This document shows, one piece after another, positions 36,711 through 55,648 of a stretch of 64,000 bases of DNA. This DNA comes from Chryseobacterium joostei (GTDB taxonomy: Bacteria > Bacteroidota > Bacteroidia > Flavobacteriales > Weeksellaceae), in assembly GCF_003815775.1 (NCBI RefSeq), contig NZ_CP033926.1, forward strand, positions 620,001-684,000. Direction: 5' to 3'. The first letter of the stretch is position 1. The number at the start of each line of letters is the position of its first letter. The translations under genes were made by a program, and so were the position numbers. The notes below the pieces were generated by a model that was given only the letters and a program-made list of their open reading frames with translations, searched no databases and was not told the DNA's origin.

Positions 36711-37814
36711 CTACATTCTAAGATGCTGAAAGTTTTTCCCTAAATGCTCTTCGATCACAAAAAATGGATCTTCTGTAAGCGTATGGGCTCTCATATCAAT
36801 AAGACTTACCTTACTCATCATACGCAGCATAATTCTTCTTTCACATGGATGTTCTATGCCATCAATATTTCTTACTCCTGCACGGAAAGCTGACCTTCCA
36901 TGAGCACATAAATGATTGTTAACAAGGATAACATCTCCGGCCTGAGGTGTAAAACCTGAATAAATCAAATGTCTTGCTTCTTCCCAGAATTCTGTTAAAT
37001 ACTGCTGAGCTTCTTCAGTTTGTTTTATACTTGAATTGAAAAGCTGTTCTGCAGCATCAAACCTCATAAACGGAAGCTTGTAATTTCCATACAATACAGA
37101 ATCCAGTGTATCTACTTCATTTTGTTCCGTTTCAAGATTGGCATCCTTCGGGATTTTGTAAATACGGTCAAAAAGAGGTCTGTAATTTTCTCCAATGGAT
37201 TCGTGAGAGCGTATAGAATAAAGAGTGGACGGAACCTGCTCTTCATTTCGGACATACATAAAGCTCAGAAAATCGGCCTGATGTTTCAAAAACGCATCTT
37301 CAGTGTGTACGTAAAGATCGGTTGAAGATCCTGATCCGGTTTGCGTTTCTCTCATTTTTTCATCTGGAATAATGGCATGGATTAACCCACCTCCCTGACG
37401 CTGAGAATAATACTGTACCGGCTTGGATGGCAAAGCTCCATGAATAAGCGCACAAGCAAACCCGTAAAGATTAAACTTCGAATAATCAGCAGACTGCCAA
37501 TTGGGTGGAGTAGATCCTATATTTTCCTGATCTATTTCCATTAATCCCTTAAAGATCAATGCTCCATATTGATTCTTAGAAAAGTCGCTCGCAAAATCAG
37601 CAGCTATATTCAGTATTCTTTCGGGTAGAAAATAAGAAGCCAGCTGATGTACGTGCCTGATAAAATCCCGATTTTCATAGTTCCCATATTTTTTCTGAAG
37701 ATGTATTGCAGCATCTTTTATCATTCTCTGTTCCTGAGATGTGATCTCAATGACGGTAGGAAGCAGTTTTACCTGCGTTAACGTCTCGTTATCTAAAATT
37801 TTTATAGAATTCAT
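36711..37814 (-). CDS. Fe(II)/2-oxoglutarate oxygenase, TauD/clavaminate-synthase-like
   Basis: A 367-residue protein. Iron ligands are visible as H170-T-E172 (LYVHTEDAF) and H305 (NNHLCAHGRSAFRAG), with Arg residues behind it for the 2-oxoglutarate carboxylate. This is the clavaminate-synthase-like/TfdA branch, which hydroxylates unactivated carbons of amino acids, including known lysine and arginine hydroxylases from Bacteroidetes. It is divergent from the siderophore operon and shares its control gap, so it probably hydroxylates the lysine/ornithine-type precursor or a product, adding a hydroxyl to the siderophore backbone. Substrate and position are inference. Confidence 0.82.
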   Translation of the reverse strand: MNSIKILDNETLTQVKLLPTVIEITSQEQRMIKDAAIHLQKKYGNYENRDFIRHVHQLASYFLPERILNIAADFASDFSKNQYGALIFKGLMEIDQENIGSTPPNWQSADYSKFNLYGFACALIHGALPSKPVQYYSQRQGGGLIHAIIPDEKMRETQTGSGSSTDLYVHTEDAFLKHQADFLSFMYVRNEEQVPSTLYSIRSHESIGENYRPLFDRIYKIPKDANLETEQNEVDTLDSVLYGNYKLPFMRFDAAEQLFNSSIKQTEEAQQYLTEFWEEARHLIYSGFTPQAGDVILVNNHLCAHGRSAFRAGVRNIDGIEHPCERRIMLRMMSKVSLIDMRAHTLTEDPFFVIEEHLGKNFQHLRM

Positions 37815-37845
37815 TAAAAAAAATTTGGTGTTAAGTAATAATTTT

Positions 37846-37893
37846 TATCTTTGTTTTTAATTATTCTAAATAATAATAGCGAGTTCAAATTTA
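37846..37893. promoter_or_regulatory. Divergent promoters with Fur-like palindrome
   Basis: Plus-strand -7 box TATCTTTG (37846-37853), minus-strand TAAATTTG (37893 to 37886), and between them TAATTATTCTAAATAATAA (37858-37876), a 19-base element in which 7 of 9 pairs are complementary about the centre, like a Fur box. It is AT-rich, so chance is a real possibility; no TTTG -33 box was found. Confidence 0.4.
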
Positions 37894-38028
37894 TGAATAA
37901 TTACTCAACCACCAAATAAAATATATAAAAAATGCAAAAATTAAAAACTTGACAATCAGACATATATAACAGGATGTCGAAAAACCACAAACAAATCACG
38001 ATTTAAAAAATCACCATACAAATAATTT

Positions 38029-39555
38029 ATGAACAACAATTTAATATCCCTAGGAGAGCTTTCAAGTGTAGCCTCGCCCCACAATTCGGGGAATTTTGGG
38101 AATATTTTTCACCTTGACAATTATGATCACTATCGTAATGCTGTCAATAGTACTTTAGACCTTGTACAGGAGTTTCTTGATAGAAACAAAAAGCCATTCA
38201 GTGGCATAGAGGCTAAGGAAATGAAAAGAATGGTAGAAGAAATCGACCTTAATCAAAAACTTTCAAACTATAACGAGCTTCTTTCTGAAGTAGATGATAT
38301 TTATGTAAAACATGCAACAGCATTTCACCTTCCGGAATATGTTGCCCATCTCAATTGTCCAATTGTTATTCCCGCATTGGCAGGAGAAATTCTGGTAAGT
38401 GCTATCAATTCTTCACAGGACACTTATGATCAAAGTGCCGGAGGAACCTTTATGGAAAGAAAGCTAATTGACTGGACTGCCGGTGAAATTGGGTATAATA
38501 CGAATGAAAGTGATGGTGTTTTCACAGCAGGAGGATCACAAAGTAACTTAATGGGACTGGTTATGATGCGTGACTGTTTTTCCCAGAAAAGATATAATCA
38601 TAATATTAAAATGGATGGTTTGCCACAGGAAGCAGATCGTTTCAGAATATTTGTTTCAGATAAATCTCACTTCAGTAATCTGAAAAATGCTTCAATAATG
38701 GGGCTTGGAGAGAAATCTATCATTAAGGTTCCTACTGATAATGAATTCCGTATGGATATTTCTCTGCTGAAGAAATATATCAAAAGGGAAGAACAAATGG
38801 GAAATATTCCTATTGGTATTGTAGCCACAGCCGGAACTACCGACTTTGGAAATGTAGATCCATTGGAAGATATTGCCAATATAGCAGAACATTATAGTAT
38901 CTGGATGCATGTGGATGCAGCATATGGATGTGCTTTATTATTAAGTGAAAAGTACCGCCATCTATTGAATGGAATTGAAAGAGCAGATTCAGTAACCATT
39001 GATTATCACAAGTCATTCTTCCAACCTATCAGCAGCAGTGCTTTCATTGTTAAAAATAAAAAAGAACTGTTAATCCTTAAACACCATGCCGATTATCTGA
39101 ATCCTAAAGAAATGGACGAGGAGGAAATTCCGGCTCAGATAAACAAATCTATCACACAGAGTACCAGACGATTTGATGCTCTTAAATTATGGTTTACTTT
39201 AAGAATGATGGGCAAGCAACAACTGGCAGAATATACGGACACTGTTATCGACCTTACAAAGGATGCAGCCTCTATGATCACTGAAGATCCTGATTTTGAA
39301 CTTCTTTCAGAAACTGATCTAAGTGTTCTTGTTTTCCGATATATAAGACCTGAAATAAATGATCTGGATGCCATGAACCAATATATTAAAATGAAGCTTT
39401 TCTACAGCGGAGAAATATTGGTGGCAAGTACCAAGGTAAACGGGAATTTCTATCTGAAGTTCACATTCCTGAATCCTATAACCACTACAGAAGATATCCA
39501 CAAAATCCTCACTAAAATCAAAATGCATGGAAAAGACTTTAGTACAGAAAAGTAG
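38029..39555 (+). CDS. PLP-dependent decarboxylase (group II, DDC-like)
   Basis: A 508-residue protein of the aromatic-L-amino-acid/glutamate decarboxylase family. Lys328 in TIDYHKSFFQP binds PLP; HVDAAYG (294-300) is the conserved Asp segment, and TAGTTDFGNVDP precedes it. In siderophore operons this family decarboxylates lysine, ornithine or 2,4-diaminobutyrate to a diamine. Here it starts the operon, and its end overlaps the IucA/IucC-GNAT gene by 29 bases. The expected product is cadaverine or putrescine, or a hydroxylated form if the divergent oxygenase acts first. Confidence 0.88.
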   Translation: MNNNLISLGELSSVASPHNSGNFGNIFHLDNYDHYRNAVNSTLDLVQEFLDRNKKPFSGIEAKEMKRMVEEIDLNQKLSNYNELLSEVDDIYVKHATAFHLPEYVAHLNCPIVIPALAGEILVSAINSSQDTYDQSAGGTFMERKLIDWTAGEIGYNTNESDGVFTAGGSQSNLMGLVMMRDCFSQKRYNHNIKMDGLPQEADRFRIFVSDKSHFSNLKNASIMGLGEKSIIKVPTDNEFRMDISLLKKYIKREEQMGNIPIGIVATAGTTDFGNVDPLEDIANIAEHYSIWMHVDAAYGCALLLSEKYRHLLNGIERADSVTIDYHKSFFQPISSSAFIVKNKKELLILKHHADYLNPKEMDEEEIPAQINKSITQSTRRFDALKLWFTLRMMGKQQLAEYTDTVIDLTKDAASMITEDPDFELLSETDLSVLVFRYIRPEINDLDAMNQYIKMKLFYSGEILVASTKVNGNFYLKFTFLNPITTTEDIHKILTKIKMHGKDFSTEK

Positions 39556-41935
39556 AACCGGAGAAAAAGCCCGGGAAATCACCTACAGGATTCTTCTCAA
39601 CGGAATGCTGAGGGAGCTTGGAAACGGAAAATTTTACCAAGGAGTTCCAAAGTATGATCTTCTTACTGCACAAGCCCTTAAAAAAAGCAATTACACCTTG
39701 CATCTGAGGTTTGAAATGAAGAAAAGCGGACTCTTTTTATTTGCTCCCGTTTCTTACCGTTCTGAAAGTGCATTTCACGAATATGGTTTTCCTGTTTGGG
39801 CTGTAGATCATAACAATAATAAGACGTTTGAAGTTAACATTCAAAAACTTATAGAATTGATTTACAGAGAATTTTCTGATCGATATACTGAAACAGGATT
39901 AGAACATTTTGAGAAAAGGATTCAGAGCAGTTTAAGAAACCTTGAACTTACTACTGAAGCCTGTTTACAACAACAGAGCCTTTTAAGTTATTCATTTTTA
40001 GAATCTGAACAAATGCTTCCGGCAGGGCACAATCTTCATCCTTTCACCAAATCCAGAATGGGGTTTTCTGAGGAAGAGCAAGTATTGTACGGCCCTGAAT
40101 TCAAAAATGGATTTCAGTTGGAGTATTTCCTTATTCATAAAGATTGTATTTCCGAAAAATCCCTGCCAGGAATCTCTGCAAAGGAAATATTCGGGAAACT
40201 GGCTTCAATACCGGAAAATTACGATTCTAAAACCGCAAATGATTATTATGTAGTTCCTTGTCATCCATGGGAAGCCCAATATCTACAGACTACGAAAGGA
40301 TATGCAGATCTTTTAGGTTCCGGAAAAGTAATACACCTTGGGCCATCCGGAGAAGAGTTCTTTGCTACATCATCTATCAGAACACTTTATAGTCCGAAGT
40401 TCAACTGGATGCTAAAATTCTCCCTGCATGTTTTGATGACCGGATCCGTAAGGACCAACAGTCTGAAGGATCTCAAAAGAGGATATGCCTCTTCTGTATG
40501 GTGGGAACAGGAAAAAGAATCATTTGAAAAAGATTTTTCAAGTTTAAAATTACTGCTGGAACCTTCTTCTTTAAGCGTTGATTATAATGGAGAAAATATT
40601 GACAGTTTCAATATCCTGATCCGTGAAAACCCTTTTTCATCTAAAGATAAGGTTCTCTTGCTGGCAAGACTTTGTCAGGATGAAACTACGGACCGTTCTA
40701 ATTTTACTACCCATTTTTTTAATGATGTTGTGGCTCATCTGAGCAAAGAAACGGAAGATGCTGTTATCAACTGGTTTCAAAAGTATGCTCAATTACTGAT
40801 CTCACCTTTGAACAGGTTGTTTAATCAGTTTGGAATGGCTCCTGAAGTTCATCAGCAAAACCTTCTTATACAACTCAATGATCAGCTTCTTCCGGAAACA
40901 ATCTATGTAAGAGACGGGCAGGGATATCTTTTAAGAGAAAGCTTTAAGGAAAAGTATACAAAATCCATAGAAAATTGCCCAGAAATTGAAACCCTGTTTA
41001 TAAGAGACGAACGTCTTCTGGATATTGTGTCTCATCATCTTTTGGTAAGCAATTTCAGTGCATTAATTTCGTCCATAGGTAAAACGGGACTCATTGAAGA
41101 ACAAAAGCTAATCAATATTCTTTATCAGGAATTTGAGCGTGTTCATCAGTCTGAACCTTCAGATTTCACCAATTATGCTTTGCATCAAAGGTATTGGGCC
41201 GTAAAATCAAACCTTCAGTCAGCTGTCCTAGATGTAGATGGTGGTGTGAATGCCTCTGCCATTGCTTATGCTAAAGTTCCCAATATTCTTCACAAATATT
41301 TCTTTTCAGAACAATTGATCCACCCGAAAGGAAAGGAGGTTTTTTTTAAACGTTATTTTCCGAAGGAAGATGTAATAACGGGAATGCGTCCGATAGATCT
41401 TGATAATGATCTTGAGATGTTGCATGAATGGTTCAACAGAGAACATGCTGTAAAAATATGGCAAATGAACTGGCCTATTGATGAGTTGGAAACCTATTAC
41501 AGACTGATGCTTCCAAGTGACGAGGCTCACAGTTATATTGTTGAAAGCAACGATGAACCAACCTGTAATATTGAGGTGTACTGGGCATGCAGAGACATCG
41601 TAGGAGATTATTATGAAGTATTGCCTACGGATTACGGAACACACCAGTTTATAGCACCCATTGATCCTAAAAAGAAATTTGTATCACCTTCAACACAATC
41701 TATGGTTGACTATGTTTTTGCGCAGCCGCAGGTTGGGAAAATGGTAGGTGAAGGTTCTGTGGATTCTCTTGCATCTATGATGAATAAAGCTCATGTTGGG
41801 TTCAAGGTAGAAAAGGTAATTGAAATGCCTCATAAAAAAGCAAATCTTAATTTCTGCTACAGAGAATGGTATTGGGAAAAGTTTCCGCTGAACAAAGACG
41901 TACAAATCACCACAAACATCACAAAAAATGAATAA
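39527..41935 (+). CDS. Fusion of NIS siderophore synthetase (IucA/IucC) and GNAT acyltransferase
   Basis: An 802-residue protein. Residues about 1-600 are an IucA/IucC-type synthetase: GHNLHPFTKSRMGF, then VVPCHPWEAQYL and FATSSIRTLYSP are its ATP and substrate motifs. Residues about 620-802 (MRPIDLDNDLEMLHEWFN, HAVKIWQMNWP, then CYREWYW near the end) match the siderophore acyltransferase domain of AlcB/IucB/RhbD type, which transfers an acyl group to a hydroxylated amine. Such enzymes are usually separate proteins, so this is a domain fusion. It overlaps its upstream and downstream neighbours (29 and 8 bases). Confidence 0.88.
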   Translation: MEKTLVQKSRTGEKAREITYRILLNGMLRELGNGKFYQGVPKYDLLTAQALKKSNYTLHLRFEMKKSGLFLFAPVSYRSESAFHEYGFPVWAVDHNNNKTFEVNIQKLIELIYREFSDRYTETGLEHFEKRIQSSLRNLELTTEACLQQQSLLSYSFLESEQMLPAGHNLHPFTKSRMGFSEEEQVLYGPEFKNGFQLEYFLIHKDCISEKSLPGISAKEIFGKLASIPENYDSKTANDYYVVPCHPWEAQYLQTTKGYADLLGSGKVIHLGPSGEEFFATSSIRTLYSPKFNWMLKFSLHVLMTGSVRTNSLKDLKRGYASSVWWEQEKESFEKDFSSLKLLLEPSSLSVDYNGENIDSFNILIRENPFSSKDKVLLLARLCQDETTDRSNFTTHFFNDVVAHLSKETEDAVINWFQKYAQLLISPLNRLFNQFGMAPEVHQQNLLIQLNDQLLPETIYVRDGQGYLLRESFKEKYTKSIENCPEIETLFIRDERLLDIVSHHLLVSNFSALISSIGKTGLIEEQKLINILYQEFERVHQSEPSDFTNYALHQRYWAVKSNLQSAVLDVDGGVNASAIAYAKVPNILHKYFFSEQLIHPKGKEVFFKRYFPKEDVITGMRPIDLDNDLEMLHEWFNREHAVKIWQMNWPIDELETYYRLMLPSDEAHSYIVESNDEPTCNIEVYWACRDIVGDYYEVLPTDYGTHQFIAPIDPKKKFVSPSTQSMVDYVFAQPQVGKMVGEGSVDSLASMMNKAHVGFKVEKVIEMPHKKANLNFCYREWYWEKFPLNKDVQITTNITKNE

Positions 41936-43244
41936 TGAAACCATTTATAATGTAATAGGTATTGGCATAGGTCCCTTTAATTTGGGGCTTGCTGCCTTAT
42001 CTAATCCAATTCCGGAACTGAAGACACTTTTCCTTGACCAAAAAGATGGTTTTGACTGGCACCCGGGATTAATGATTGACCATGTAACGCTACAGACTCC
42101 ATTTTTATGTGACTGTGTTTCAATGGCTGATCCTACTAACCCTTTAAGCTTACTTAATTATTTGAAAGTAACGGGAAGGCTTTATAAGTTTTTCATCAGA
42201 GAAAACTTCTTCATTCCCAGAAAAGAATACAACCGCTATTGCCAATGGGTGATTGAACAGCTTCCACAATGTCGTTTTTCAACCCAGGTAACAGATATTG
42301 AATATGTGGATGGCCTTTATCTGGTCACCACTATTCATACCAAAACTAAGGAAAAAACAGTTTTAAAGACGGAAAGATTAGTTTTAGGAACTGGAACACA
42401 ACCTCATATTCCTTCTTTTATTCCTAAAGATGATTCCCGTATCATTCATACAAGTTCTTATCTGTATAGAAAAGAAGAGCTTTTGTCTAAAGGCCGTAAG
42501 ATAGCCATTATTGGGTCGGGGCAGAGTGCTGCGGAAGTTTTTTATGATCTTCTCCAAAATAGGGATGAAAACACCGAATTAGGATGGTATTCCCGTCCGG
42601 ACAGATTTTTCCCTATGGAATATTCTAAACTGACGTTGGAACTTACTTCTCCTGATTATGTAGAATATTTCTATAACAGAAACAAGGAAGCCAGAAAAAC
42701 CATTCTAAGCAAACAGCAAAGCCAGTTTAAAGGAATTAACTATGATCTGATTAATGACATCTACGATTTTATCTACGATCTTAATATTGACAATGCAGAT
42801 CCGATGCTTAAAATCATTCCGAACAGCCAGTTGAATAGGGTAGATAATAGTAATCTGGAAACTATTAATCTTGAATTTACTCAATTGGAACAGGAAGTTC
42901 CTTATGAACAGGAAGCTGATTATCTGATTCTTGGGACCGGATACTGTTATCATGAGCCTGCATTCCTGAAAAATATTCAATCCAGAATTAAAAGAGATGT
43001 CGATGGGTTGTTTGATGTTAACAGAAATTACTCAATAGATCACAACAACCGAGAAATCTATATACTTCATGCAGAAGTACATACGCACAGCTATATTTCT
43101 ACAGATCTGGGAATGGCTGCCTACCGAAACTCCTACATCATTAATGATATCCTTGGAAGAGAGCATTATAAAATTGAGAGAAAAATAGCTTTCCAGGACT
43201 TTGATGTAGAAAAATACGCTGATTTACCCACTGCCAACATTTAA
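41928..43244 (+). CDS. Lysine/ornithine N-monooxygenase-type flavoprotein
   Basis: A 438-residue FAD- and NADPH-dependent monooxygenase of the IucD/AlcA/RhbE family. The FAD-binding GxGxxN-like motif is GIGIGPFNLG at residues 11-20; the NADPH motif is IAIIGSGQSAAEVF; the substrate region is LILGTGYCYHEP. It adds a hydroxyl to the terminal amine of a diamine or amino acid (cadaverine/putrescine-type here), giving the hydroxylamine acylated by the GNAT domain. Its start overlaps the previous gene by 8 bases. Confidence 0.92.
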   Translation: MNNETIYNVIGIGIGPFNLGLAALSNPIPELKTLFLDQKDGFDWHPGLMIDHVTLQTPFLCDCVSMADPTNPLSLLNYLKVTGRLYKFFIRENFFIPRKEYNRYCQWVIEQLPQCRFSTQVTDIEYVDGLYLVTTIHTKTKEKTVLKTERLVLGTGTQPHIPSFIPKDDSRIIHTSSYLYRKEELLSKGRKIAIIGSGQSAAEVFYDLLQNRDENTELGWYSRPDRFFPMEYSKLTLELTSPDYVEYFYNRNKEARKTILSKQQSQFKGINYDLINDIYDFIYDLNIDNADPMLKIIPNSQLNRVDNSNLETINLEFTQLEQEVPYEQEADYLILGTGYCYHEPAFLKNIQSRIKRDVDGLFDVNRNYSIDHNNREIYILHAEVHTHSYISTDLGMAAYRNSYIINDILGREHYKIERKIAFQDFDVEKYADLPTANI

Positions 43245-43253
43245 TATTAAAAA

Positions 43254-45068
43254 ATGAACACCAACTTAAAAAATAATATCATTAGCCAGGAGCACTGGCA
43301 GCAGGCCAACAGAAATTTAATGGCCAAAACCATTGCAGAATTAATGCATGAGGAATTATTAAAACCTGTACCATCCTTTGAAGATGAAATGGGATATACC
43401 GTATTCATCCTGGAAACCGGTATTGAAAATATTGTTTATCACTTCCGCGGACAGGAAAGAATGATGGATTATTGGCATATTGATAAGGACAGTATTTCTA
43501 AAACAGAAAACGGTGAGAAAACATCTTTTGTAGATGTAGCTGCCTTTTTCCTGGAAATGCAGTCTGTATTTGATCTAGATCCTTATACCATTGCAAGATA
43601 CACAGAAGAATTGCTGCATACTTTATATTGTGATGCCCTGATTCTTGCCAAAGGAGTAATGTCCTCAAAAGATCTTACTACAGCAGATTACCAGACCGTA
43701 GAACATAATATGACCGGACATCCGTGGGTAATTGTAAACAAAAGCAGGCTTGGCTTCTCACCACGTGATCTTAAAACATTTGCTCCGGAAGCTGAAGAAA
43801 ACCTTAAGGTGATTTGGCTGGCATCTCATAAGAGCAGATCGGCATTTCAGTCATTGGAACATATCAACAGGGAAGAATTTTACCGTTCTGAAATTGGAAA
43901 TACGTTGTATAAAGATTTTCAGCAAAAATTGATAGAAGAAGGAAAACTTGTTGAAGACTATCATTTTATTCCTGTTCATCCTTGGCAGTGGGAACATAAA
44001 CTTCAGATTCATTTTGCAGGAGATATTGCCAACGAGCTTTTAATCCAGCTGGGAGAGGGAGAAGATATTTATAGTCCACAGCAAAGTATTCGTACTTTAT
44101 TTAATGTAGATCATCCTAAAAAAAGATATCTGAAAACAGCGGTTTCTATTCTAAGTACAGGAAATATCAGAGGATTGTCTCCTAAGCAGATGAAAATTGC
44201 CCCATCCATTACAGATTGGGTGAAAGGTTTAATAAAAGATGATACCTATCTGGAAAACAAAGGAACCATTTTTCTGGGTGAAGAAGCTTCAATTGCCTAT
44301 CTGCATCCGCAGTATGGAGCTATTGCCAGTGTACCTTATCAATACAATGAATTTCTTGGAGCCTTATGGCGTGAAAGTGCAGAAAACTACCTTACAGAAG
44401 AAGAACAAATGGTTACCATGGCTTCATTGCTTTATGTAGATGATAACGGAATTCCTTTGGTACAGGCTTTTGCAGAAAAGGCGGGAATGAGTATCAAGGA
44501 ATGGATATCCAGTTATCTTGATGCCTATCTTACCCCTTTACTTCATATCTATTATACCCATTCATTATGTGTAACTCCACATGGTGAAAACATTATGGTC
44601 GTGTTAAAAAATGGGGTACCACAGAGAATTGTTATCAAGGACTTTGTGGATGATATTGTCCTGACAACAGAAGCAAGAGAAAAACTTCCTGCACACCTTG
44701 CAGATGGATTAATACAGTCTTCCAACAAGGAAAACATCCCGCTGTTTATCTTGCTAGGCGTATTTGATGCATTCTTCAGATACCTTTCCAATATACTGCA
44801 CACCTATTCAAACTTTCAGGAAGAAACATTCTGGACTCTTGTTCATGAGTGTATAGAAAGTTACAAAGCAGACAACAGCCACCTGCAGGAACGTTATAAA
44901 AAATATGATCTGTATGTTCCAACATTCAAGAGATTTTACATCAACAGTCTGCGTCTGAAAAATAATGGGTATAGTGAAAATAAAGCATTTGCCATTCCAA
45001 GAAAAGATGGTGCATTGCCTAATCCGCTTTATCAGATAGCCAATAAAAATTCTGTAGCTGTACTATGA
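43254..45068 (+). CDS. IucA/IucC-type NIS siderophore synthetase
   Basis: A 604-residue synthetase. Conserved motifs seen: GHPWVIVNKSRLGFSPRDL, FIPVHPWQWEHKL, then QSIRTLFN, followed by a FhuF-type C-terminal region (VIKDFVDDI). It condenses a hydroxamate-bearing amine with a dicarboxylic acid such as citrate or succinate, using ATP. A second, GNAT-fused synthetase in the operon indicates either two different condensation steps or desferrioxamine-like oligomerisation. It ends with an ATGA overlap to the MATE gene. Confidence 0.9.
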   Translation: MNTNLKNNIISQEHWQQANRNLMAKTIAELMHEELLKPVPSFEDEMGYTVFILETGIENIVYHFRGQERMMDYWHIDKDSISKTENGEKTSFVDVAAFFLEMQSVFDLDPYTIARYTEELLHTLYCDALILAKGVMSSKDLTTADYQTVEHNMTGHPWVIVNKSRLGFSPRDLKTFAPEAEENLKVIWLASHKSRSAFQSLEHINREEFYRSEIGNTLYKDFQQKLIEEGKLVEDYHFIPVHPWQWEHKLQIHFAGDIANELLIQLGEGEDIYSPQQSIRTLFNVDHPKKRYLKTAVSILSTGNIRGLSPKQMKIAPSITDWVKGLIKDDTYLENKGTIFLGEEASIAYLHPQYGAIASVPYQYNEFLGALWRESAENYLTEEEQMVTMASLLYVDDNGIPLVQAFAEKAGMSIKEWISSYLDAYLTPLLHIYYTHSLCVTPHGENIMVVLKNGVPQRIVIKDFVDDIVLTTEAREKLPAHLADGLIQSSNKENIPLFILLGVFDAFFRYLSNILHTYSNFQEETFWTLVHECIESYKADNSHLQERYKKYDLYVPTFKRFYINSLRLKNNGYSENKAFAIPRKDGALPNPLYQIANKNSVAVL

Positions 45069-46468
45069 GGAAACTCCTGCATATCCTAAAAAATGGAACG
45101 GCTTTCACCTACGGAGCCTTAGCCGGTAAAAAAGTAGAGCTTACTTCCGGAAGCATTAACCGTTCCATTTTTAGCTTAGCAATTCCAATGGTGATGGAGC
45201 TTGTGATGGAATCCGTCTTCGTAAGTGTCAACCTTTTAATTATTGCCAGATTAGGTGATAAGGTTCTTGGCCTTGTAGGAATTACGGATAACTACATCAA
45301 TTTTGCCTATGCCATTGCGGTGGGACTCGGCATTGCCGCAGCGACCCTTACAGCAAGAAGAGCTGGTGAAAAAGACAAAGAAGGAATGGGCAGAACCGCT
45401 CATTATATTATTCTTTTAGCTCTGTTTTTCGCAGTGCTTATTGGCGGGGTCTCCTGTTATTTTGCTTCTGAAATTGTAGGATTTCTGGGAATTAATGCCA
45501 ATACGGTAAACGAAGGGGTATCGTTTTCAAGGCTTGTATTTTTGAGTATTGGACTTGTTATCCTTCGTCTTTCCGTGAATGGACTTTTTAGGGGGGCCGG
45601 CGACGCAGACCTTGCCATGAAATCACTTTGGATCTGTCATATTTCGAATATCATCTTTGCTGTAATCTTGGTCTTTGGATTAGGGTTTATTCCAGCTTTC
45701 GGATTGATGGGATTGGCTTATGCAACAGTTTTATCCAGACTTTTAGCAGTCTTGTATCAGGCCTTTATCTTTCTGTCCGGAAAGACAAGTATCAACATCC
45801 TTATGCCTTTTCACTTTGATCTGCCATTACTCAGAAAAATTTTGAAAATAGCCTTTGGAGGACTGGTTCAATATATCATTCCAACGTCCAGCTGGTTGAT
45901 TATGGTAAAAATTATCTCCACATTCGGTACTACAGCCCTTGCGGGATATATTATTGCCCAACGTATTGCTTCAGTAGCCACTATGCCTGCATGGGGAATA
46001 GGAAACGCCGCAGGAGTGCTTACAGGACAGAACTTAGGAGCCGGTGATGCAGACCGTGCAGAGAAAACAGTATGGAGAGCCGGGACAATTAATATGAGCT
46101 ATCTGCTTGCAGTAGCATTATTTTGGCAGCTTGCCGCCGAATATGTAGTAAAATTCTTTACTACAGAACCTGAAGTCGCAAGGTATGCCGTACAATATAT
46201 TCATGTCGTTTCTATGGCTTATTTGTTATTAGGGTTTACAATGGTCATCAGCCGTGCCCTGAATGCCGCAGGAAACATCATGCAGGTCACCTTATTGTAT
46301 ATCGTCATGTTCTATGTAATTCAGCTTCCCTTGGCTTATCTCCTGGGAGTAAGATTTCAATGGGAACTGAAAGGGATATTTACGGCTATCGTTTCCTCGG
46401 AAATCGTATTAGCCATATTATTCTTAATGATCTTTAAAAATGGTAAATGGAAAACTATAAAAATTTAA
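45065..46468 (+). CDS. MATE-family efflux transporter (siderophore exporter)
   Basis: A 467-residue protein with about 12 hydrophobic segments in two similar halves. MATE features include LAIPMVMELVMESVF, GLVGITDNYI and a central loop before the second half (GGLVQYIIPTSSWL). It overlaps the synthetase gene by four bases and is followed closely by the ACP gene, so its role is very likely export of the finished siderophore; sodium- or proton-coupled antiport is the family mechanism. Confidence 0.88.
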   Translation: MRKLLHILKNGTAFTYGALAGKKVELTSGSINRSIFSLAIPMVMELVMESVFVSVNLLIIARLGDKVLGLVGITDNYINFAYAIAVGLGIAAATLTARRAGEKDKEGMGRTAHYIILLALFFAVLIGGVSCYFASEIVGFLGINANTVNEGVSFSRLVFLSIGLVILRLSVNGLFRGAGDADLAMKSLWICHISNIIFAVILVFGLGFIPAFGLMGLAYATVLSRLLAVLYQAFIFLSGKTSINILMPFHFDLPLLRKILKIAFGGLVQYIIPTSSWLIMVKIISTFGTTALAGYIIAQRIASVATMPAWGIGNAAGVLTGQNLGAGDADRAEKTVWRAGTINMSYLLAVALFWQLAAEYVVKFFTTEPEVARYAVQYIHVVSMAYLLLGFTMVISRALNAAGNIMQVTLLYIVMFYVIQLPLAYLLGVRFQWELKGIFTAIVSSEIVLAILFLMIFKNGKWKTIKI

Positions 46469-46469
46469 A

Positions 46470-46715
46470 ATGAACACCACAGAAGAATTTTATGAAATTA
46501 TTGCATCTGCAATTGCAATAAAAAAAGAATTGGTAAACGAAAACCTTACGTATCAGGAAATCCCGGAATGGGATTCTATGTCTCACCTTCTTATTGTAGA
46601 AGCGCTTGAACAGTTTTACCAGATCAAATTTGACTTCAATGATATCCTGGAAATGGGTACCGTTGGAAAAATTCGTGAAAAAATGAAAAAATACGAGGTA
46701 CTCGTAGAAAACTAA
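46470..46715 (+). CDS. Acyl carrier protein
   Basis: An 81-residue four-helix carrier. The phosphopantetheine attachment Ser is S36 in PEWDSMSHLLIVEA (family DSL/DSM motif), with acidic helix 2 (EALEQF). It starts one base after the MATE stop and is followed by an AMP-forming ligase 4 bases later, the natural enzyme to load it. Carrier proteins are not needed in standard NIS siderophore pathways, so this pair points to an acyl or aminoacyl unit presented to the GNAT domain or to a later step. It needs a separate phosphopantetheinyl transferase, not seen in this window. Confidence 0.9.
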   Translation: MNTTEEFYEIIASAIAIKKELVNENLTYQEIPEWDSMSHLLIVEALEQFYQIKFDFNDILEMGTVGKIREKMKKYEVLVEN

Positions 46716-46719
46716 GAAT

Positions 46720-48108
46720 ATGAAAATTTTAGAAAATGTAATTGCCAACAAGAATCTGGTATTTACAGAAGCTTCAAGCGGTAAAACGATACCGATTGGA
46801 GCTTTGTATCGGTCCTTAGGCTTAAATCCTGTAGAAAAAGGACTCCTCTTTTTGTACAATGACAACCAGCTGCCCGGTATTGAGGTTCTCCTCAATTTTT
46901 ACGGAACAGCACATGCTATTGCCTTGCTGGGACAAAAGCTCAATCCGGAGTTCAAAGACCGGATTGAAGCTGAATATCGTCCCAAATACATCTTTGATCC
47001 ACAAAGGGAAGCCATTACTGGATACAGTTTGAAAGAATTTTCGGATACGATTAAGATTTTTGCCAGAGATAATTACAAAAGTGAGGTCAAAATTAATCCG
47101 GAAATCAAAATTCTCTTGAGTACTTCGGGAACTACAGGTATTCCAAAGCTGGTGAAGCTATCGGACGAAAACCTTTTCCAGAATGCCATTAGTATTCTTA
47201 AATACATGCCCATTCTGGAATCTGATGTAGTTCCTTTAAATGTGCCAATCAATTTTGTGTATGGATTTTCCATTTTCACCACCAACTGTATGCGTGCCGG
47301 AAGAATAGTATGTTCTGATAAAGACATTATGCAGAAAGCTTTCTGGGATGAAATGGATGAATATGGATACAGTACCTTAGGAGGGGTCCCTTATTTGTAC
47401 GAAAACCTAAACAGAATAGGTTTTTTCAGGAAAGACAGTCCTAGTCTGAGGTATTTTACCCATACCGGAGGCGTCATTAACGGAGAATTGAGAAAAACAC
47501 TTTTTTCTTACTGTAGCGAGTATGGAAAACATTTCTTCGCACAATACGGCCAGACCGAAGCAGGAGGAAGAATGGCTTATCTCAATACAGAAGGATTATT
47601 AGAAGAGGAAACATCCATCGGAACTCCTGTAGAAGGCGGAAGTTTTAGCATTCATGATGAAACAGATGAATTACTCTTTTCACATGTTAGTATTTTCGGA
47701 GGCTATGCCAATACGCTTGAGGATCTTGCATCCTACGAGCAGCCATCGGTATTGCACACCGGAGATACAGCCACAAAAGGTGAGAACGGAATATATTATA
47801 TCACAGGCAGAATAAAGCGTATCATGAAGCTTTTCGGAATACGTCTTAATCTGGATGAAGTAGAATTTATTCTTAAAAACGAACTGACGGGAAATACTTT
47901 TGTTTGTCTTAATTCCAATGACAAGAAGATCGTTGTGCTTTATGATAATAAGGATATTGACCCTCAGATCATCACAGAAACCATTAAAAACAAATTGCGC
48001 ATTAACCCACAATATGTGCGCACAGAACTTATAGAATCATTTCCATTATCACAAAACGGTAAAATAAATTATCCCCTGTTACAAAACTTACAACATGAAA
48101 ACATTTAA
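46720..48108 (+). CDS. AMP-forming acyl ligase
   Basis: A 462-residue ANL-superfamily enzyme, shorter than acyl-CoA synthetases (about 550). ATP-binding motif LLSTSGTTGIPK at residues 132-143, the A5-type motif YGQTE at 276-280, HTGD at 346-349, and the late catalytic Lys in SQNGKINY (K448). It activates a carboxylic acid as an AMP ester; next to the ACP it should load that acid onto the carrier. Which acid (fatty, aryl, dicarboxylic or amino acid) cannot be read from the sequence. It overlaps the receptor gene by 14 bases. Confidence 0.88.
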   Translation: MKILENVIANKNLVFTEASSGKTIPIGALYRSLGLNPVEKGLLFLYNDNQLPGIEVLLNFYGTAHAIALLGQKLNPEFKDRIEAEYRPKYIFDPQREAITGYSLKEFSDTIKIFARDNYKSEVKINPEIKILLSTSGTTGIPKLVKLSDENLFQNAISILKYMPILESDVVPLNVPINFVYGFSIFTTNCMRAGRIVCSDKDIMQKAFWDEMDEYGYSTLGGVPYLYENLNRIGFFRKDSPSLRYFTHTGGVINGELRKTLFSYCSEYGKHFFAQYGQTEAGGRMAYLNTEGLLEEETSIGTPVEGGSFSIHDETDELLFSHVSIFGGYANTLEDLASYEQPSVLHTGDTATKGENGIYYITGRIKRIMKLFGIRLNLDEVEFILKNELTGNTFVCLNSNDKKIVVLYDNKDIDPQIITETIKNKLRINPQYVRTELIESFPLSQNGKINYPLLQNLQHENI

Positions 48109-50515
48109 AACCCTTATATTACTTTTTACACTTGCCTTATTTTCAGGTTCTCTTTCTGCACAGCAGAGTGAACGTATTCGTGGCAAGATCATGTTGTCTG
48201 AACAGACACCCGTAAAAAACGCACTTTTAAGACTTATGAATACGTCTTATCAGGCAAAAACCAATAATTTAGGAGAATTTTACTTTGATAATGTTACCCC
48301 TGGAGAGTATACTCTCCAGGTGGTTTTAAATGACATGGAGCTGATGCGGGAGCAAATCCATATTAAACAAGATGTCTACGAAATACCTACTGTTTATGCC
48401 CCTGCGCATAGCAATGACATTGAAGGAATTACAGTATATGCTTTTAGTAGAAACAAATTTTTGGCTAAAGACAGTACTTCAATCTCTAAAATGCCCCTAA
48501 AAAGCTTGGAAAATCCACAGGCTTATACTATTATCAACCAACAGATTTTAAAAGAACAGCTTACCTATGATGTTTCAGAAGTATTGAAAAATGTTCCGGG
48601 TATGGTAAAAATGCAGGGAAGTCCGGGAAGGGGTTCAGGAGATGGAAGTTTTTATTACAGCCTTAGAGGTTTCCCTACAAAAATATCAATGGTAGATGGT
48701 GTTCCTGCCAATACCAATGGTGAAGTTGACCCTGCGGATATTGAACATATCGAAGTGATTAAAGGACCATCAGGAACTTTATATGGAGGAGCAGTAACCT
48801 CTTTTGGAGGATTGATTAATGTAGTGACCAAAAAGCCAAAGGATTATTTCGGAGGTGAAATTTCTTATTTGATGGGAAGCTACAACCTGAATCGTGTGAC
48901 TGCAGATGTTTATGGTCCGGTTACAGATTCCAGAAAAACCTTATTCCGTCTTAATGCCGCTTATCAGTATCAAAACGGTTTTAGGGATTCTGAATTCAGA
49001 AAATCATTCTTTGTTGCCCCTACATTAAGCTATCAGGTAAATGATAAGTTGAAATTTAGCTTAGGAGCTCAGATTTACAATTATGAAGGAACCAATACAC
49101 CTATTATTTTCCTTGCCAGATCCAGGCCTTTTGTAGCCCATACGCCTGAAGAGCTTGGATTCGATTGGAAAAGATCATATTCCAACAATGATATGACCTT
49201 GAAGGCTCCATCCATCAACGTAAAAGCTGAGATTAATTATAAAATTTCGAAGAACTGGAGTTCACAAACCCTGATTTCGAGAAACTATAGAAAAACAGAA
49301 GGCTTATACCAATATCAATTCATCAGAGGAGATAAAAGTGATGCAATGCTGGAACGTAATGTACAATGGCAGAACTCAGAAGCTGCTTCTACAAGTGTTC
49401 AACAGAACTTTAACGGACAGTTTAATATTGGAAAGATCAAAAATAAGGTGTTGATTGGTTTAGATTATTTAAATCAATCCCTGAACAACAATCATTCACC
49501 TATCATTAAGTTTGATACCATCAACGGACAGGATCTTACTGCTAAGTATGGCTTTATCTCAAGAGATCTGGCAATGCAGAAAATTCAGGTATCAAAGGCT
49601 GCTTTAACAAGAACGACAATGTCCAGTAATGTTTATGGAGCCTATCTTTCTGATGCGGTTTATATTACCGATAGATTGATCACTTTATTGAGTTTACGTA
49701 TCGATCATTATGAAAGCAAAGGACAGCTTAATCTAAATAAAAATGAACGTCTGGGTGAGTTTAAGCAAACTGCATGGTCTCCTAAAGTAGGAGTTGTTTA
49801 TCAGGTATTTAAAGACCGTTTATCAGTATATGCTAATTATATGAATGGTTTCAGCTATACACCTCCGGTTACTCAAGGACTTGCCGATTATGACGGAAAT
49901 ATGAAGCCACAAAAATCCAACCAATGGGAAGCTGGATTCAAAGGAAATCTTTGGAGAAATCGTATTAATTTCACGGTAGGATACTATGATATTCTGGTTG
50001 ACAATATGCAGAGAGAAATTGAGGTAATGCGTAATGGAAAAGGATACAGAATCACCATTCAGGATGGAGAACAAAGAAGTAAAGGAGTGGAACTAGAAGT
50101 AATCGCGAATCCTCTTCAAGGCTTGAACGTTATGGCAGGATATGCGTATAACGACAGTAGGTTTGTGAAAGCAGAACCTACTGTAGACGGACGTCGCCCA
50201 GGATCTGCAGGACCGGCAAGTGTCTTTAATTCATGGGTAAGCTATGTGCTTCAATTCGGTCCTTTGGATGGACTTGGTTTTGGTTTTGGAGTAAATCGTG
50301 TAGGACATCAAATTACAGAGCATAAAACTACTACAGGAAAATTCACTTTCCCTGCTTATACTCTAATCAATGCATCCATCACCCTTGAAAAAGAAAGATA
50401 CAGATTAGGATTCAAAATGAACAATTTAGGCAATGCACAATATTTCGCAGGGCAGGGGGTCGTAGTAGCCCAGATGCCTCGTAATTTTGTTGCTGAGGTA
50501 AGCCTTAAATTCTAA
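48095..50515 (+). CDS. TonB-dependent siderophore receptor
   Basis: An 806-residue outer-membrane receptor with signal peptide (MKTFKTLILLFTLALFSGSL plus SAQ). Order: a carboxypeptidase-regulatory-like beta-sandwich at about 28-105; a TonB-box-like DIEGITVYA at 108-116; a plug domain (about 130-245) with VPGMVKMQGSPGRGSGDGSF; then a beta barrel ending in Phe (VAEVSLKF), as outer-membrane barrels do. It imports the ferric form of the siderophore made by the operon. The start lies inside the ligase gene's end by 14 bases; a PepSY gene follows after 2 bases. Confidence 0.92.
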   Translation: MKTFKTLILLFTLALFSGSLSAQQSERIRGKIMLSEQTPVKNALLRLMNTSYQAKTNNLGEFYFDNVTPGEYTLQVVLNDMELMREQIHIKQDVYEIPTVYAPAHSNDIEGITVYAFSRNKFLAKDSTSISKMPLKSLENPQAYTIINQQILKEQLTYDVSEVLKNVPGMVKMQGSPGRGSGDGSFYYSLRGFPTKISMVDGVPANTNGEVDPADIEHIEVIKGPSGTLYGGAVTSFGGLINVVTKKPKDYFGGEISYLMGSYNLNRVTADVYGPVTDSRKTLFRLNAAYQYQNGFRDSEFRKSFFVAPTLSYQVNDKLKFSLGAQIYNYEGTNTPIIFLARSRPFVAHTPEELGFDWKRSYSNNDMTLKAPSINVKAEINYKISKNWSSQTLISRNYRKTEGLYQYQFIRGDKSDAMLERNVQWQNSEAASTSVQQNFNGQFNIGKIKNKVLIGLDYLNQSLNNNHSPIIKFDTINGQDLTAKYGFISRDLAMQKIQVSKAALTRTTMSSNVYGAYLSDAVYITDRLITLLSLRIDHYESKGQLNLNKNERLGEFKQTAWSPKVGVVYQVFKDRLSVYANYMNGFSYTPPVTQGLADYDGNMKPQKSNQWEAGFKGNLWRNRINFTVGYYDILVDNMQREIEVMRNGKGYRITIQDGEQRSKGVELEVIANPLQGLNVMAGYAYNDSRFVKAEPTVDGRRPGSAGPASVFNSWVSYVLQFGPLDGLGFGFGVNRVGHQITEHKTTTGKFTFPAYTLINASITLEKERYRLGFKMNNLGNAQYFAGQGVVVAQMPRNFVAEVSLKF

Positions 50516-50517
50516 CT

Positions 50518-51681
50518 ATGAAGCTTAAATTTAGAAAAATAGCATATCAGCTACATCTATGGCTCGGACTAACGTCCGGGCTTATAGTTGTTATAATGGC
50601 AGCCACTGGATGTATTTTAGTATTTGAAGAAGAATTAAAACATATTGTTCACCCAAAAAGATATTTTGTAGAGAACATTGGAGGCAAAAAACTATCGCTT
50701 TCTGATCTTACAGCAAAAGCTGAAAAAGCCCTGCCTGATGGATTGAAGGTTAAAAGAGCTATAATTTCATCCGATCCTTCCCGTACTTATGTATTCCGAA
50801 CCCTTAAAATGGATAACGAAGCGCTGACCTATTGGGGAACCTACCTTTATTATTATAGAGTTTATATAGACCCGTACACAGGGAAAGTTCAGGAAGTAGA
50901 AGATGCAAAAAAAGATTTTTTTGAAATTGTACTGGATCTTCACCGAAGGCTGTTGCTGGGAGAAAAAATAGGAAAAACCATTACAGGATATTCTACACTG
51001 GTCTTCGCCATTATTCTTCTTTCGGGATTAGTGATATGGTATCCAAGAAAGATGAGCAAAGCTATGTTGAAAGGTATGTTCTTCATTAAAACTTCTGCCA
51101 ACTGGAAAAGAATCAACTATGATGTTCATAATGTATTAGGGTTTTATGCCATAATTCCTTTATTATTTATTTCTTATTCAGCTTTGATCTGGAATTTTGA
51201 AAGTATGGATAAATGGATCAAGAATACATTGAATGGAAATATACCCACAGAAAAGAAAGCAAAAAGTAAAATTCCTACGGAAGGATCTGATACATCTGTC
51301 AATATTTTGGATATGATTGGCAATAAGGTAGAAAAAGGGTTAATCACTAAAGAATCTGCACTTGTTAATTTTCCAAGAACAGAGGAAGGAACCTATTATA
51401 CAGAACTTACTTTAGGAAAAAAACAATACCAGAACGAAAATTATAATTTTGACCAGTATTCTGGTGAAATTCTAAAACATCAATTTTATAAAGACAAAAA
51501 TATAGGATATGGTACCGCACTAAGGGAAAGAAATTACGATTTACATACAGGAAGTCTCTTCGGAATCACCGGAAGAATTATTTATCTTTTTGCCGGAATT
51601 ATCGCAGCATCGCTTCCCATTACAGGTTTTATTATTTATCTCAACAAGAAAAAGAAGAAACCCCAAAAGAAAAAAGCATAA
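50518..51681 (+). CDS. PepSY-domain inner-membrane protein (ferric-siderophore reductase-like)
   Basis: A 387-residue protein with an N-terminal helix (QLHLWLGLTSGLIVVIMAAT), a periplasmic PepSY region, a His-containing segment LDLHRRLLLGEKIGKTITG, two central helices, and a last helix after DLHTGSLFGITGRIIYL. This is the PepSY-associated transmembrane family found beside TonB receptors, whose bis-histidine helices carry heme and reduce ferric siderophore or feed electrons to it. It follows the receptor after 2 bases and precedes a terminator, so it closes the operon. Confidence 0.88.
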   Translation: MKLKFRKIAYQLHLWLGLTSGLIVVIMAATGCILVFEEELKHIVHPKRYFVENIGGKKLSLSDLTAKAEKALPDGLKVKRAIISSDPSRTYVFRTLKMDNEALTYWGTYLYYYRVYIDPYTGKVQEVEDAKKDFFEIVLDLHRRLLLGEKIGKTITGYSTLVFAIILLSGLVIWYPRKMSKAMLKGMFFIKTSANWKRINYDVHNVLGFYAIIPLLFISYSALIWNFESMDKWIKNTLNGNIPTEKKAKSKIPTEGSDTSVNILDMIGNKVEKGLITKESALVNFPRTEEGTYYTELTLGKKQYQNENYNFDQYSGEILKHQFYKDKNIGYGTALRERNYDLHTGSLFGITGRIIYLFAGIIAASLPITGFIIYLNKKKKKPQKKKA

Positions 51682-53224: not shown

Positions 53225-53264
53225 AATATCAAAACTGGCACCATACAACCATCCGGCAATATAC

Positions 53265-53272
53265 TACTTTTG
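53265..53272 (+). promoter_or_regulatory. -7 box for the biotin operon
   Basis: TACTTTTG, fitting TAnnTTTG, 18 bases before the ATG at 53291, in the divergent gap with the MocR gene. No inverted repeat as clear as the one at 4087 was found. Confidence 0.5.
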
Positions 53273-53290
53273 ACATCAAAATAAAAATCT

Positions 53291-55016: not shown

Positions 55017-55039
55017 AGCAAAATAGCTGACACAACCAT

Positions 55040-55648
55040 ATGAAACTATTTATAACAGGAATAGGAACCGAAATAGGAAAAACGGTTTGTTCTGCCATTT
55101 TAGTACAGCATTTTAAAGCTGATTACTGGAAACCGGTACAATCAGGAGATCTACACTATACTGACAGTAAAAAAATTGAAGACTGGACAGACAATACAAT
55201 ATGCCATCCGGAAAGATACCGTCTGCAATTGGCTGCATCTCCCCACCAGTCTGCCAGAGCGGAAAACATAGACATCAATCTTGATGAGTTTCAATTACCA
55301 GAAACTCAAAACGCATTGATTGTAGAGGGCGCAGGTGGGCTTATGGTCCCTCTTTCGGATCATAGCTTTATGATTGATTTGATAGAAAAACTAAGGATTC
55401 CTACAGCACTTGTTGTAAGAAATTACCTAGGCTGCATCAATCATACCTTGCTTTCCGTGATGGTATTACAACAAAGAAAAATCAAACTTGAATATCTTAT
55501 CCTTAATGGAGAATTTCCTGAAGATACAGAAAGAGTAATCTGTTCTTTCATTGAAAAGGATACAAAAATTATCAGAATTCCTGAAATCAGCCCCGATAAA
55601 GAAAATATCACCACTACAGCAAAACAATTAACAATAACAAAATTATGA
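55040..55648 (+). CDS. bioD: Dethiobiotin synthetase
   Basis: A 202-residue P-loop protein: [14 protein letters not shown] near residue 7 is the nucleotide-binding loop, YWKPVQSG is the conserved substrate region and [11 protein letters not shown] is the second motif. It closes the ureido ring of dethiobiotin from 7,8-diaminononanoate, CO2 and ATP. It lies 23 bases after bioF, and its stop overlaps the start of bioB. Confidence 0.92.

What the first reader, a model, noticed from the sequence alone, without database searches (positions are those of the whole stretch)
36711..51681. NIS siderophore operon carrying an acyl carrier protein and an AMP-forming ligase
The operon has the expected parts of a desferrioxamine/aerobactin-type pathway: decarboxylase, N-monooxygenase, GNAT domain, two IucA/IucC synthetases, MATE exporter, TonB receptor and PepSY reductase. 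Inserted between exporter and receptor are a carrier protein (S36) and a 462-residue ligase, not needed in known NIS pathways. They predict a siderophore with an extra acyl group, perhaps a fatty or aryl tail, loaded on the carrier and transferred by the fused GNAT domain. This could be a new siderophore type.
Basis: partly seen in the sequence, partly recalled or inferred. Interest (0 to 1): 0.8.

Follow-up and report, generated by a model that had tools for sequence, protein, structure and literature searches.

The report
Genes for a fumarate-tipped iron scavenger
These genes most likely make chryseochelin, an iron-scavenging molecule of Chryseobacterium known since 2023 but with no published gene cluster that we could find, and the two unexplained genes probably load fumarate onto a carrier protein so that it can be attached to the molecule.

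Summary
KDO5 itself is encoded in a sister operon with the same carrier and ligase. 4-Hydroxylysine minus CO2 is 3-hydroxycadaverine, a building block of chryseochelin, a Chryseobacterium citrate dihydroxamate whose hydroxamates carry fumarate. So the 'extra' acyl group is probably fumaryl, forming the hydroxamates, not a fatty or aryl tail. Ligase and hydroxylase occur in the same 33 of 98 genus genomes. In the 80 closest named loci kept, carrier, MATE and second synthetase are in 80 and the acyltransferase domain in 79; ligase-linked acyltransferases form one supported group. Fumarate as substrate is inferred, not shown; pocket residues and fold did not discriminate. A fatty-acyl role for chryseochelin C is the main rival.

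The parts
36711..37814 (-). L-lysine 4-hydroxylase homologue (Fe(II)/2-oxoglutarate oxygenase, clavaminate synthase-like); predicted to make 4-hydroxylysine
   Evidence: 211 of 351 aligned positions identical (60%) to KDO5 (PDB 6euo), E 1.2e-140 in the PDB search; KDO5 residues W112, R145, S167, H176, E178, Y193, D230, N232, H312, R334, R338 (passages of PMC6224419) are W106, R139, S161, H170, E172, Y187, D224, N226, H305, R327, R331 here, read by eye off the alignment; Pfam TauD
37815..38028 (.). 214-base divergent region between hydroxylase and operon; no Fur-box-like site better than shuffles
   Evidence: best match to a recalled 19-base Fur consensus has 6 mismatches; 123 of 500 shuffles do as well or better. 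A 4-mismatch site lies at 38116, inside the decarboxylase gene; three more such sites occur on the + strand of the window (31794, 32499, 45898), so it is not convincing
38029..39555 (+). PLP decarboxylase; predicted to turn 4-hydroxylysine (or lysine) into 3-hydroxycadaverine (or cadaverine)
   Evidence: Pfam Pyridoxal_deC E 2.8e-66; best NCBIfam match is a diaminobutyrate decarboxylase, below cut-off
39527..41935 (+). Fusion of an IucA-like NIS synthetase (N-terminal) and a GNAT/IucB-type acyltransferase (about residues 606-802); GNAT part predicted to be the fumaryl transferase
   Evidence: Pfam IucA_IucC, FhuF and Acetyltransf_8; best PDB relative IucA; GNAT part 70-98% identical in 79 of 80 ligase loci
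41928..43244 (+). Flavin N-monooxygenase (Lys_Orn_oxgnase); predicted N-hydroxylation of the diamine
   Evidence: Pfam E 7.6e-111
43254..45068 (+). Second NIS synthetase, DesD/DfoC/AlcC-like
   Evidence: Pfam; PDB best DfoC E 3e-123, IucC E 4.8e-71
45065..46468 (+). MATE exporter
   Evidence: Pfam MatE E 3.8e-46; NCBIfam matE over cut-off
46470..46715 (+). Free-standing carrier protein, phosphopantetheine site Ser36 in WDSM
   Evidence: weak NCBIfam carrier matches below cut-off; WDS(M/V/I) in 80 of 80 related loci
46720..48108 (+). AMP-forming ligase predicted to load fumarate on the carrier protein; TSGTTGIPK, YGQTE, TGD and NGK (K448) motifs present
48095..50515 (+). TonB-dependent siderophore receptor
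   Evidence: NCBIfam TonB-siderophor over cut-off, 263.5 bits; nearest equivalogs FoxA/FhuA, below cut-off
50518..51681 (+). PepSY-TM protein, likely ferric-siderophore reductase
   Evidence: Pfam PepSY_TM E 9.2e-62; role by inference

Best explanation
The operon makes a chryseochelin-type siderophore. The divergent oxygenase hydroxylates lysine at C-4; the decarboxylase gives 3-hydroxycadaverine; the flavin monooxygenase N-hydroxylates one amine. The ligase adenylates fumarate and transfers it to the phosphopantetheine arm of the small carrier protein; the GNAT domain fused to the first synthetase moves fumaryl from the carrier to the N-hydroxylamine, giving a fumaryl hydroxamate. The IucA-like and DesD/IucC-like synthetases join two such arms to citrate, through amine or hydroxyl. 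MATE exports the product; the TonB receptor and PepSY protein recover the iron. Shown here: gene content, homology, co-occurrence. Inferred: every reaction in this organism, and fumarate as the ligase's substrate.
For: Lysine 4-hydroxylase identity; KDO5, letter for letter the crystallised chain, is encoded about 9.8 kb upstream of such a ligase and carrier in Flavobacterium sp. CF136. Chryseochelin A contains citrate, two 3-hydroxycadaverine arms, two hydroxamates and two fumarates, in Chryseobacterium. Hydroxylase and ligase in the same 33 of 98 genus genomes. Ligase (50% identity or more) and GNAT (70% or more) in the same 7 of 395 Bacteroidota genomes; ligase and fusion (67% or more) in the same 11 of 148 family genomes. 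In the 80 named loci kept, carrier, MATE and second synthetase in 80, GNAT in 79. Ligase-linked GNATs form one group, support 100/99, with 13 residues invariant in 75 linked and absent from 5 unlinked GNATs. GNAT is the best conserved part (median 73% against 51% for carrier and 53% for ligase outside Weeksellaceae) although its silent sites are about as diverged as those of its neighbours in the 11 loci tested. Ligase and carrier are present in 9 genomes without a detected hydroxylase, so they do not depend on the hydroxyl through which the chryseochelin B/C ester forms. Precedent for fumarate adenylation: bafilomycin Orf3/Orf2. Two PPTase-domain matches over cut-off in the genome.
Against: No substrate evidence for the ligase: Arg284, a candidate for holding the second carboxylate, is also kept in distant ligases from other clusters; structure neighbours mix oxalyl-CoA, fatty-acyl, aryl and amino-acid enzymes, with a fatty-acyl ligase domain first by VIA Z, in a tie. 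The chryseochelin paper, in the parts seen, names no genes, and its producers are typed only to genus. The second synthetase is closer to DesD/DfoC than to IucC. Loci were chosen by ligase similarity, so linkage counts are one-sided. Nine of 39 non-Weeksellaceae genomes show no hydroxylase, so the product cannot be identical everywhere. Genomes in each sample are related, so counts are not independent events.
Confidence: 0.72

Rival explanations
1. Ligase and carrier supply the fatty acyl chains (C3 to C17) of chryseochelin C, while fumaryl for the hydroxamate comes from elsewhere, such as a CoA thioester. This is.
For: Chryseochelin C carries fatty acyl chains; ligase families matched include fatty-acyl ligases, and some databases call relatives of this ligase long-chain fatty acid-CoA ligases (automatic names); FadD10 and FACL13 are among the structural neighbours, FACL13 first by VIA Z in a tie.
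Against: The operon has one recognised acyltransferase, needed for the hydroxamate. The paper derives C by acylation of the free amine of B with many chain lengths, unlike the work of a dedicated ligase. That amine is freed only when the arm is ester-linked through the 3-hydroxyl, yet carrier and ligase are present in 9 genomes without a detected hydroxylase. None of the 25 best of 62 matched NCBIfam models, fatty-acyl ligases included, reaches its cut-off.
Confidence: 0.13
2. Ligase and carrier activate another small acid (malate, succinate, acetate, crotonate or a 3-hydroxyacid), or fumarate arises after loading; the product is a relative of chryseochelin with a different hydroxamate acyl group.
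For: Ligase specificity not determined; two of three distant ligases read in context sit with a carrier and a FabG-like reductase, suggesting small hydroxyacyl groups there.
Against: No reductase, dehydratase or isomerase gene for the acyl group was recognised in this operon; chryseochelin from the same genus carries fumarate.
Confidence: 0.11
3. The DesD-like synthetase links fumaryl hydroxamate arms head to tail through the free fumaryl carboxylate, giving a bisucaberin-like product instead of a citrate diamide.
For: Second synthetase is nearest to DfoC/DesD/AlcC.
Against: The IucA-like domain has no role in such a pathway; chryseochelin has free fumaryl carboxylates and a citrate core.
Confidence: 0.04

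Closest known systems
Chryseochelins A-C (Chryseobacterium; PMC9989332: abstract, passages and strain section seen)
   Same: Genus, citrate core, 3-hydroxycadaverine, dihydroxamate; each building block has a candidate enzyme here
   Different: The passages seen and the term counts ('gene cluster' 0, 'acyl carrier' 0) give no gene assignment; product of this strain not measured
Aerobactin pathway (IucA-IucB-IucC-IucD; recalled)
   Same: N-monooxygenase, IucB-type acyltransferase, IucA-like synthetase, second synthetase
   Different: Aerobactin uses lysine itself and acetyl-CoA (recalled); here diamine arms, a lysine 4-hydroxylase, and a carrier plus ligase
Desferrioxamine / bisucaberin pathways (DesA-D, DfoC; recalled)
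   Same: Decarboxylase, diamine N-hydroxylase, GNAT, DesD-like synthetase
   Different: Those use succinyl- or acetyl-CoA and no citrate (recalled); extra IucA domain, hydroxylase, carrier and ligase here
Mycobactin MbtK-MbtL-MbtM acylation set (recalled; no text found in the library)
   Same: AMP ligase loads a carrier protein, a GNAT of the IucB/MbtK type transfers the acyl group to an amine; MbtK is among the PDB relatives of this GNAT (E 1.2e-7)
   Different: Long-chain acyl and NRPS assembly there; short dicarboxylate and NIS assembly proposed here
Bafilomycin Orf3/Orf2 fumaryl transfer (PMC7827423, one passage)
   Same: Fumarate activated as fumaryl-AMP and transferred to a natural product
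   Different: No carrier protein mentioned in the passage; acceptor is a hydroxyl; relationship of the ligases not tested
KDO5, L-lysine 4-hydroxylase (PDB 6euo; PMC6224419, passages)
   Same: 60% identical to 36711-37814, the eleven active-site residues named in the passages kept
   Different: Studied as an isolated enzyme; the search listing counts 'siderophore' 0 times in that paper

Membership tests
NIS (IucA/IucC) siderophore operon | IucA/IucC synthetase genes | tested here: met
   Two, Pfam E 7e-52 and 2.2e-74
NIS (IucA/IucC) siderophore operon | Hydroxamate-forming set: N-monooxygenase and IucB-type acyltransferase | tested here: met
   Pfam PF13434 and PF13523
Chryseochelin pathway | Enzymes for 3-hydroxycadaverine (lysine 4-hydroxylase and decarboxylase) | tested here: met
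   By homology: KDO5-like with active site kept and PLP decarboxylase; activity not tested
Chryseochelin pathway | Synthetases able to put two arms on citrate | tested here: inconclusive
   First is IucA-like; second is DesD/DfoC-like rather than IucC-like
Chryseochelin pathway | Fumaryl donor | tested here: inconclusive
   Carrier and ligase are the only candidates in the operon; substrate not identified
Chryseochelin pathway | Operon present in the published producer strains CHR2, CHR5, CHR6 | not testable with these tools
   Producers typed only by 16S to genus
Chryseochelin pathway | Compound made by this organism | not testable with these tools
   Needs LC-MS
Fatty-acyl ligase (FadD/FAAL) | Curated NCBIfam model for a fatty-acyl ligase reached | tested here: inconclusive
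   Not reached by the 25 best of 62 matched models that were shown, e.g. PRK06187 71.7 bits against 476, Staph FadD 68 against 650, PRK06334 (long-chain acyl-ACP ligase) 48.6 against 847; 37 weaker models not shown; a new subfamily could still use fatty acids
ANL adenylate-forming enzymes | AMP-binding domain, ANL fold and catalytic lysine motif | tested here: met
   Pfam, model and neighbours, NGK with K448 invariant in 13 and 57 sequences
Lysine 4-hydroxylase (KDO) family | Fe ligands and lysine-binding residues of KDO5 | tested here: met
Desferrioxamine/bisucaberin pathway | No carrier/ligase, no IucA-type domain (recalled) | tested here: not met
   Carrier, ligase and IucA-like domain present

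The most novel reading that the evidence does not exclude
A branch of NIS siderophore synthesis, spread over several Bacteroidota families, in which the hydroxamate acyl group is a dicarboxylic acid (fumarate) delivered by a dedicated carrier protein and AMP ligase, in the style of mycobactin acylation but inside an NIS pathway, covering chryseochelins and a set of unseen relatives, including versions without the C-4 hydroxyl where the hydroxylase is missing.
Probability: 0.6. Interest if true: 0.7.

Novelty: new variant of a known kind. Interest (0 to 1): 0.6.

Why it matters
It links an isolated siderophore, reported to inhibit the plant pathogen Ralstonia solanacearum by limiting its iron, to a concrete gene set, and gives a native pathway to the lysine 4-hydroxylases used as biocatalysts. 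It also suggests that NIS pathways can borrow carrier-protein chemistry, so that genome mining can predict which Flavobacterium, Chitinophaga, Niastella, Pedobacter and Chryseobacterium strains make fumaryl hydroxamates.

Tried and rejected
Pocket residues: residues conserved in 80 operon ligases were compared with 6 distant ligases. Arg284, which I first thought might hold the second carboxylate, was not operon-specific there and is invariant in 57 ligases including three distant ones, so it does not discriminate. First structure model from 13 sequences was poor (mean pLDDT 62.5); the second, from 57, was good (87.7), but its neighbours are all kinds of ANL enzymes: a chain named oxalate-CoA ligase ranks first in Foldseek and FadD10 sixth, while FACL13, a fatty-acyl ligase domain, ranks first by VIA Z with ties behind it; no substrate can be read from this. 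Fur box: in the divergent region nothing better than shuffles. tRNA and Rfam scans of the window: nothing. The idea that the very similar GNAT domain reflects recent gene transfer was set aside because four-fold silent sites in the 11 of 80 loci tested are about as diverged as in neighbouring genes (GNAT counts rest on 41-61 codons each). Literature searches found no gene assignment (two searches listed 20 of 29 and 20 of 32 papers; the library holds open-licence papers only). A 2021 genome paper reports a ten-gene siderophore cluster in Chryseobacterium sp. KMC2 without a mechanism in the passages seen, and a protein record under that strain's name is an 85% identical ligase. MbtK/MbtL/MbtM text was not found. 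The searches scored at most 11, 4 and 16 ligase candidates per genome.
Full report
What is there. Nine tightly packed + strand genes (38029-51681) and one divergent gene (36711-37814, minus) were read from the sequence and named by Pfam and NCBIfam: PLP decarboxylase, IucA/IucC-GNAT fusion, flavin N-monooxygenase, second IucA/IucC, MATE, an 81-residue carrier protein (motif and weak matches only), a 462-residue AMP ligase, TonB receptor and PepSY protein. The ligase has no close paralogue in the genome (next best match 30% identity).

The missed gene. The divergent gene is an L-lysine 4-hydroxylase homologue: E 1.2e-140 to PDB 6euo, 60% identity. Eleven KDO5 active-site residues named in the passages seen of PMC6224419, which bind iron, succinate or lysine or shape the pocket, are identical here when read by eye off the alignment. 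The KDO5 protein itself is encoded in Flavobacterium sp. CF136, on the 26,009-base contig that also holds ligase locus L072 with its carrier, about 9.8 kb upstream of the ligase; its translation matches the crystallised chain over all 372 residues.

The product. Decarboxylation of 4-hydroxylysine gives 3-hydroxycadaverine (established chemistry; a title in the reference list of PMC12930750 reports 3-hydroxycadaverine production by engineering). Chryseochelin A, secreted by three Chryseobacterium strains, is a citrate dihydroxamate with 3-hydroxycadaverine and fumaric acid; B is an isomer with an ester link and a free amine, C its fatty-acylated form, B and C resting on mass spectrometry (PMC9989332: abstract, passages and section 7 seen). 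The authors write that further studies are needed to prove the biosynthetic pathway, and 'gene cluster' and 'acyl carrier' are counted 0 times in the text. Each building block has a candidate enzyme in this operon, and the one without a common metabolic thioester (recalled), fumaryl, matches the two genes that known NIS pathways lack.

Distribution in the genus. Of 98 genomes of the window's genus, 50 hold an IucA/IucC domain, 33 the hydroxylase and 33 the ligase; the two sets of 33 are identical and all 33 are among the 50. The other 17 have synthetases but neither gene. One of these 17, G082, was read: TonB receptor, decarboxylase, IucA-GNAT (GNAT 52% identical), monooxygenase and a distant MATE (21%), with no carrier, ligase, hydroxylase or second synthetase in the 19 kb. 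So in this sample, relatives lacking the ligase also lack the hydroxylase and are unlikely to make the same compound. These genomes are related, so the counts are not independent events.

Distribution in the family and phylum. In 148 family genomes, 11 have the ligase and the same 11 have the fusion at 67% or more; 3 more have weaker fusion matches (31-38%) and no ligase. In 395 Bacteroidota genomes, 7 have a ligase at 50% or more and the same 7 a GNAT at 70% or more; 6 have weaker ligases (32-41%) with no GNAT match at E 1e-15, and 5 have weaker GNATs (at most 51%) with no ligase. Three of the six weaker ligases were read in context. L145 and L149 stand with a carrier protein, a FabG-like reductase and a weakly LuxE-like protein, among genes that look like sugar-type ones by my reading of their first residues only; L146 has no carrier match.

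Named loci. In these 80, carrier, MATE and second synthetase are present in 80; the decarboxylase in 76, the monooxygenase in 77; the GNAT in 79, the miss being L094, a 6.4-kb record. The carrier motif WDS(M/V/I) is in 80 of 80. The hydroxylase is in 41 of 41 Weeksellaceae loci and in 30 of the 39 other genomes. In 29 of those 30 its coordinates lie 8.9-14.6 kb upstream of the ligase; for L073 the coordinates do not fit one contig and linkage is unresolved, although the script's own tally said 30 of 30. The nine without a detected hydroxylase are L070, L071, L077, L081, L085, L087, L094, L102 and L104; L071 and L094 come from metagenome-assembled genomes. In the Pedobacter genomes of L102 and L104 the monooxygenase lies elsewhere.

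Acyltransferase domain. In a tree of 83 distinct GNAT domains, the 75 ligase-linked ones are one side of a branch with support 100/99; the 5 unlinked and 3 unassigned ones lie outside. Seven of the eight outside rows have long branches. Outside Weeksellaceae the GNAT part has median identity 73% to the window's, against 32% for the IucA part, 51% for the carrier and 53% for the ligase. In the 8 distant of 11 loci tested, four-fold silent sites of the GNAT are 20-37% identical, within the range of the other genes. This points to strong selection on protein sequence, as expected if donor (acyl-carrier) and acceptor stayed the same. Thirteen residues are invariant in 75 linked GNATs and absent from 5 unlinked ones, including K754 and K785 of the fusion; that they read the fumaryl carboxylate or the carrier is speculation.

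Why fumaryl and not a fatty tail. The operon has one recognised acyltransferase, and hydroxamates need one. Chryseochelin's hydroxamate acyl is fumaryl. Fatty chains in chryseochelin C sit on an amine freed by ester linkage through the 3-hydroxyl and vary from C3 to C17. Carrier and ligase are present in nine genomes where no hydroxylase was found and where that ester could not form; since loci were chosen by the ligase, this shows only that the ligase's role does not need the hydroxyl. Fumarate activation by an adenylating enzyme has precedent in bafilomycin (PMC7827423, one passage). The ligase-carrier-GNAT logic resembles MbtM-MbtL-MbtK of mycobactin (recalled). The genome holds two PPTase-domain matches over cut-off that could arm the carrier.

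What is not shown. No result identifies the ligase's substrate. Conserved residues, fold and neighbours are compatible with several acids, fatty acids included. The second synthetase looks more like DesD/DfoC than IucC, so the exact joining chemistry is open. The published producers have no species name and no genome that I could tie to them.

Verdict. A sound observation with a partly right reading. The compound is probably known; the gene assignment and the carrier-based fumaryl supply were not found in the searched open-licence library and are testable.

Noticed in passing
window 51737-55648: Directly downstream lies a biotin locus: a MocR-type regulator (51737-53248, minus; below the cut-off of the 25 NCBIfam models shown), an unnamed 207-residue protein (53291-53914; no NCBIfam match), BioF-like (53907-55016; below cut-off) and BioD (55040-55648; over cut-off). 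It resembles the BioL and bioEFD genes described for Elizabethkingia (PMC12915131, passages); the 207-residue protein would be BioE by position only.
   Followed up: partly
L145:7982-11425 and L149:7873-11356: Two distant relatives of the ligase sit as carrier protein, FabG-like reductase, ligase and a weakly LuxE-like protein (below cut-off), a recurring four-gene set that may build and hand over a small hydroxyacyl group.
   Followed up: partly
L102, L104 (Pedobacter): Carrier, ligase, GNAT fusion, second synthetase and MATE stay together, but decarboxylase and monooxygenase homologues are not in the locus; the monooxygenase lies elsewhere in both genomes.
   Followed up: partly
L142, L143, L144 (window's genus and family): Other hydroxamate gene sets without carrier and ligase: IucA-GNAT fusion alone (L142), and proteins of 534-564 residues ending in a GNAT domain beside a monooxygenase (L143, L144), possibly a further siderophore type.
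   Followed up: no
G598 (genus sample): A genome with two IucA/IucC domains, in frames of 814 and 810 residues on one contig, but without ligase or hydroxylase.
   Followed up: no
window 39527-41935: Within one protein the GNAT part is about 73% and the IucA part about 32% identical (medians) to relatives outside the family, an unusual contrast inside a single reading frame.
   Followed up: partly
G000:C1:1662411-1662665: One of the two PPTase-domain matches of the genome lies in an open frame of 1431 residues, far longer than a usual PPTase.
   Followed up: no
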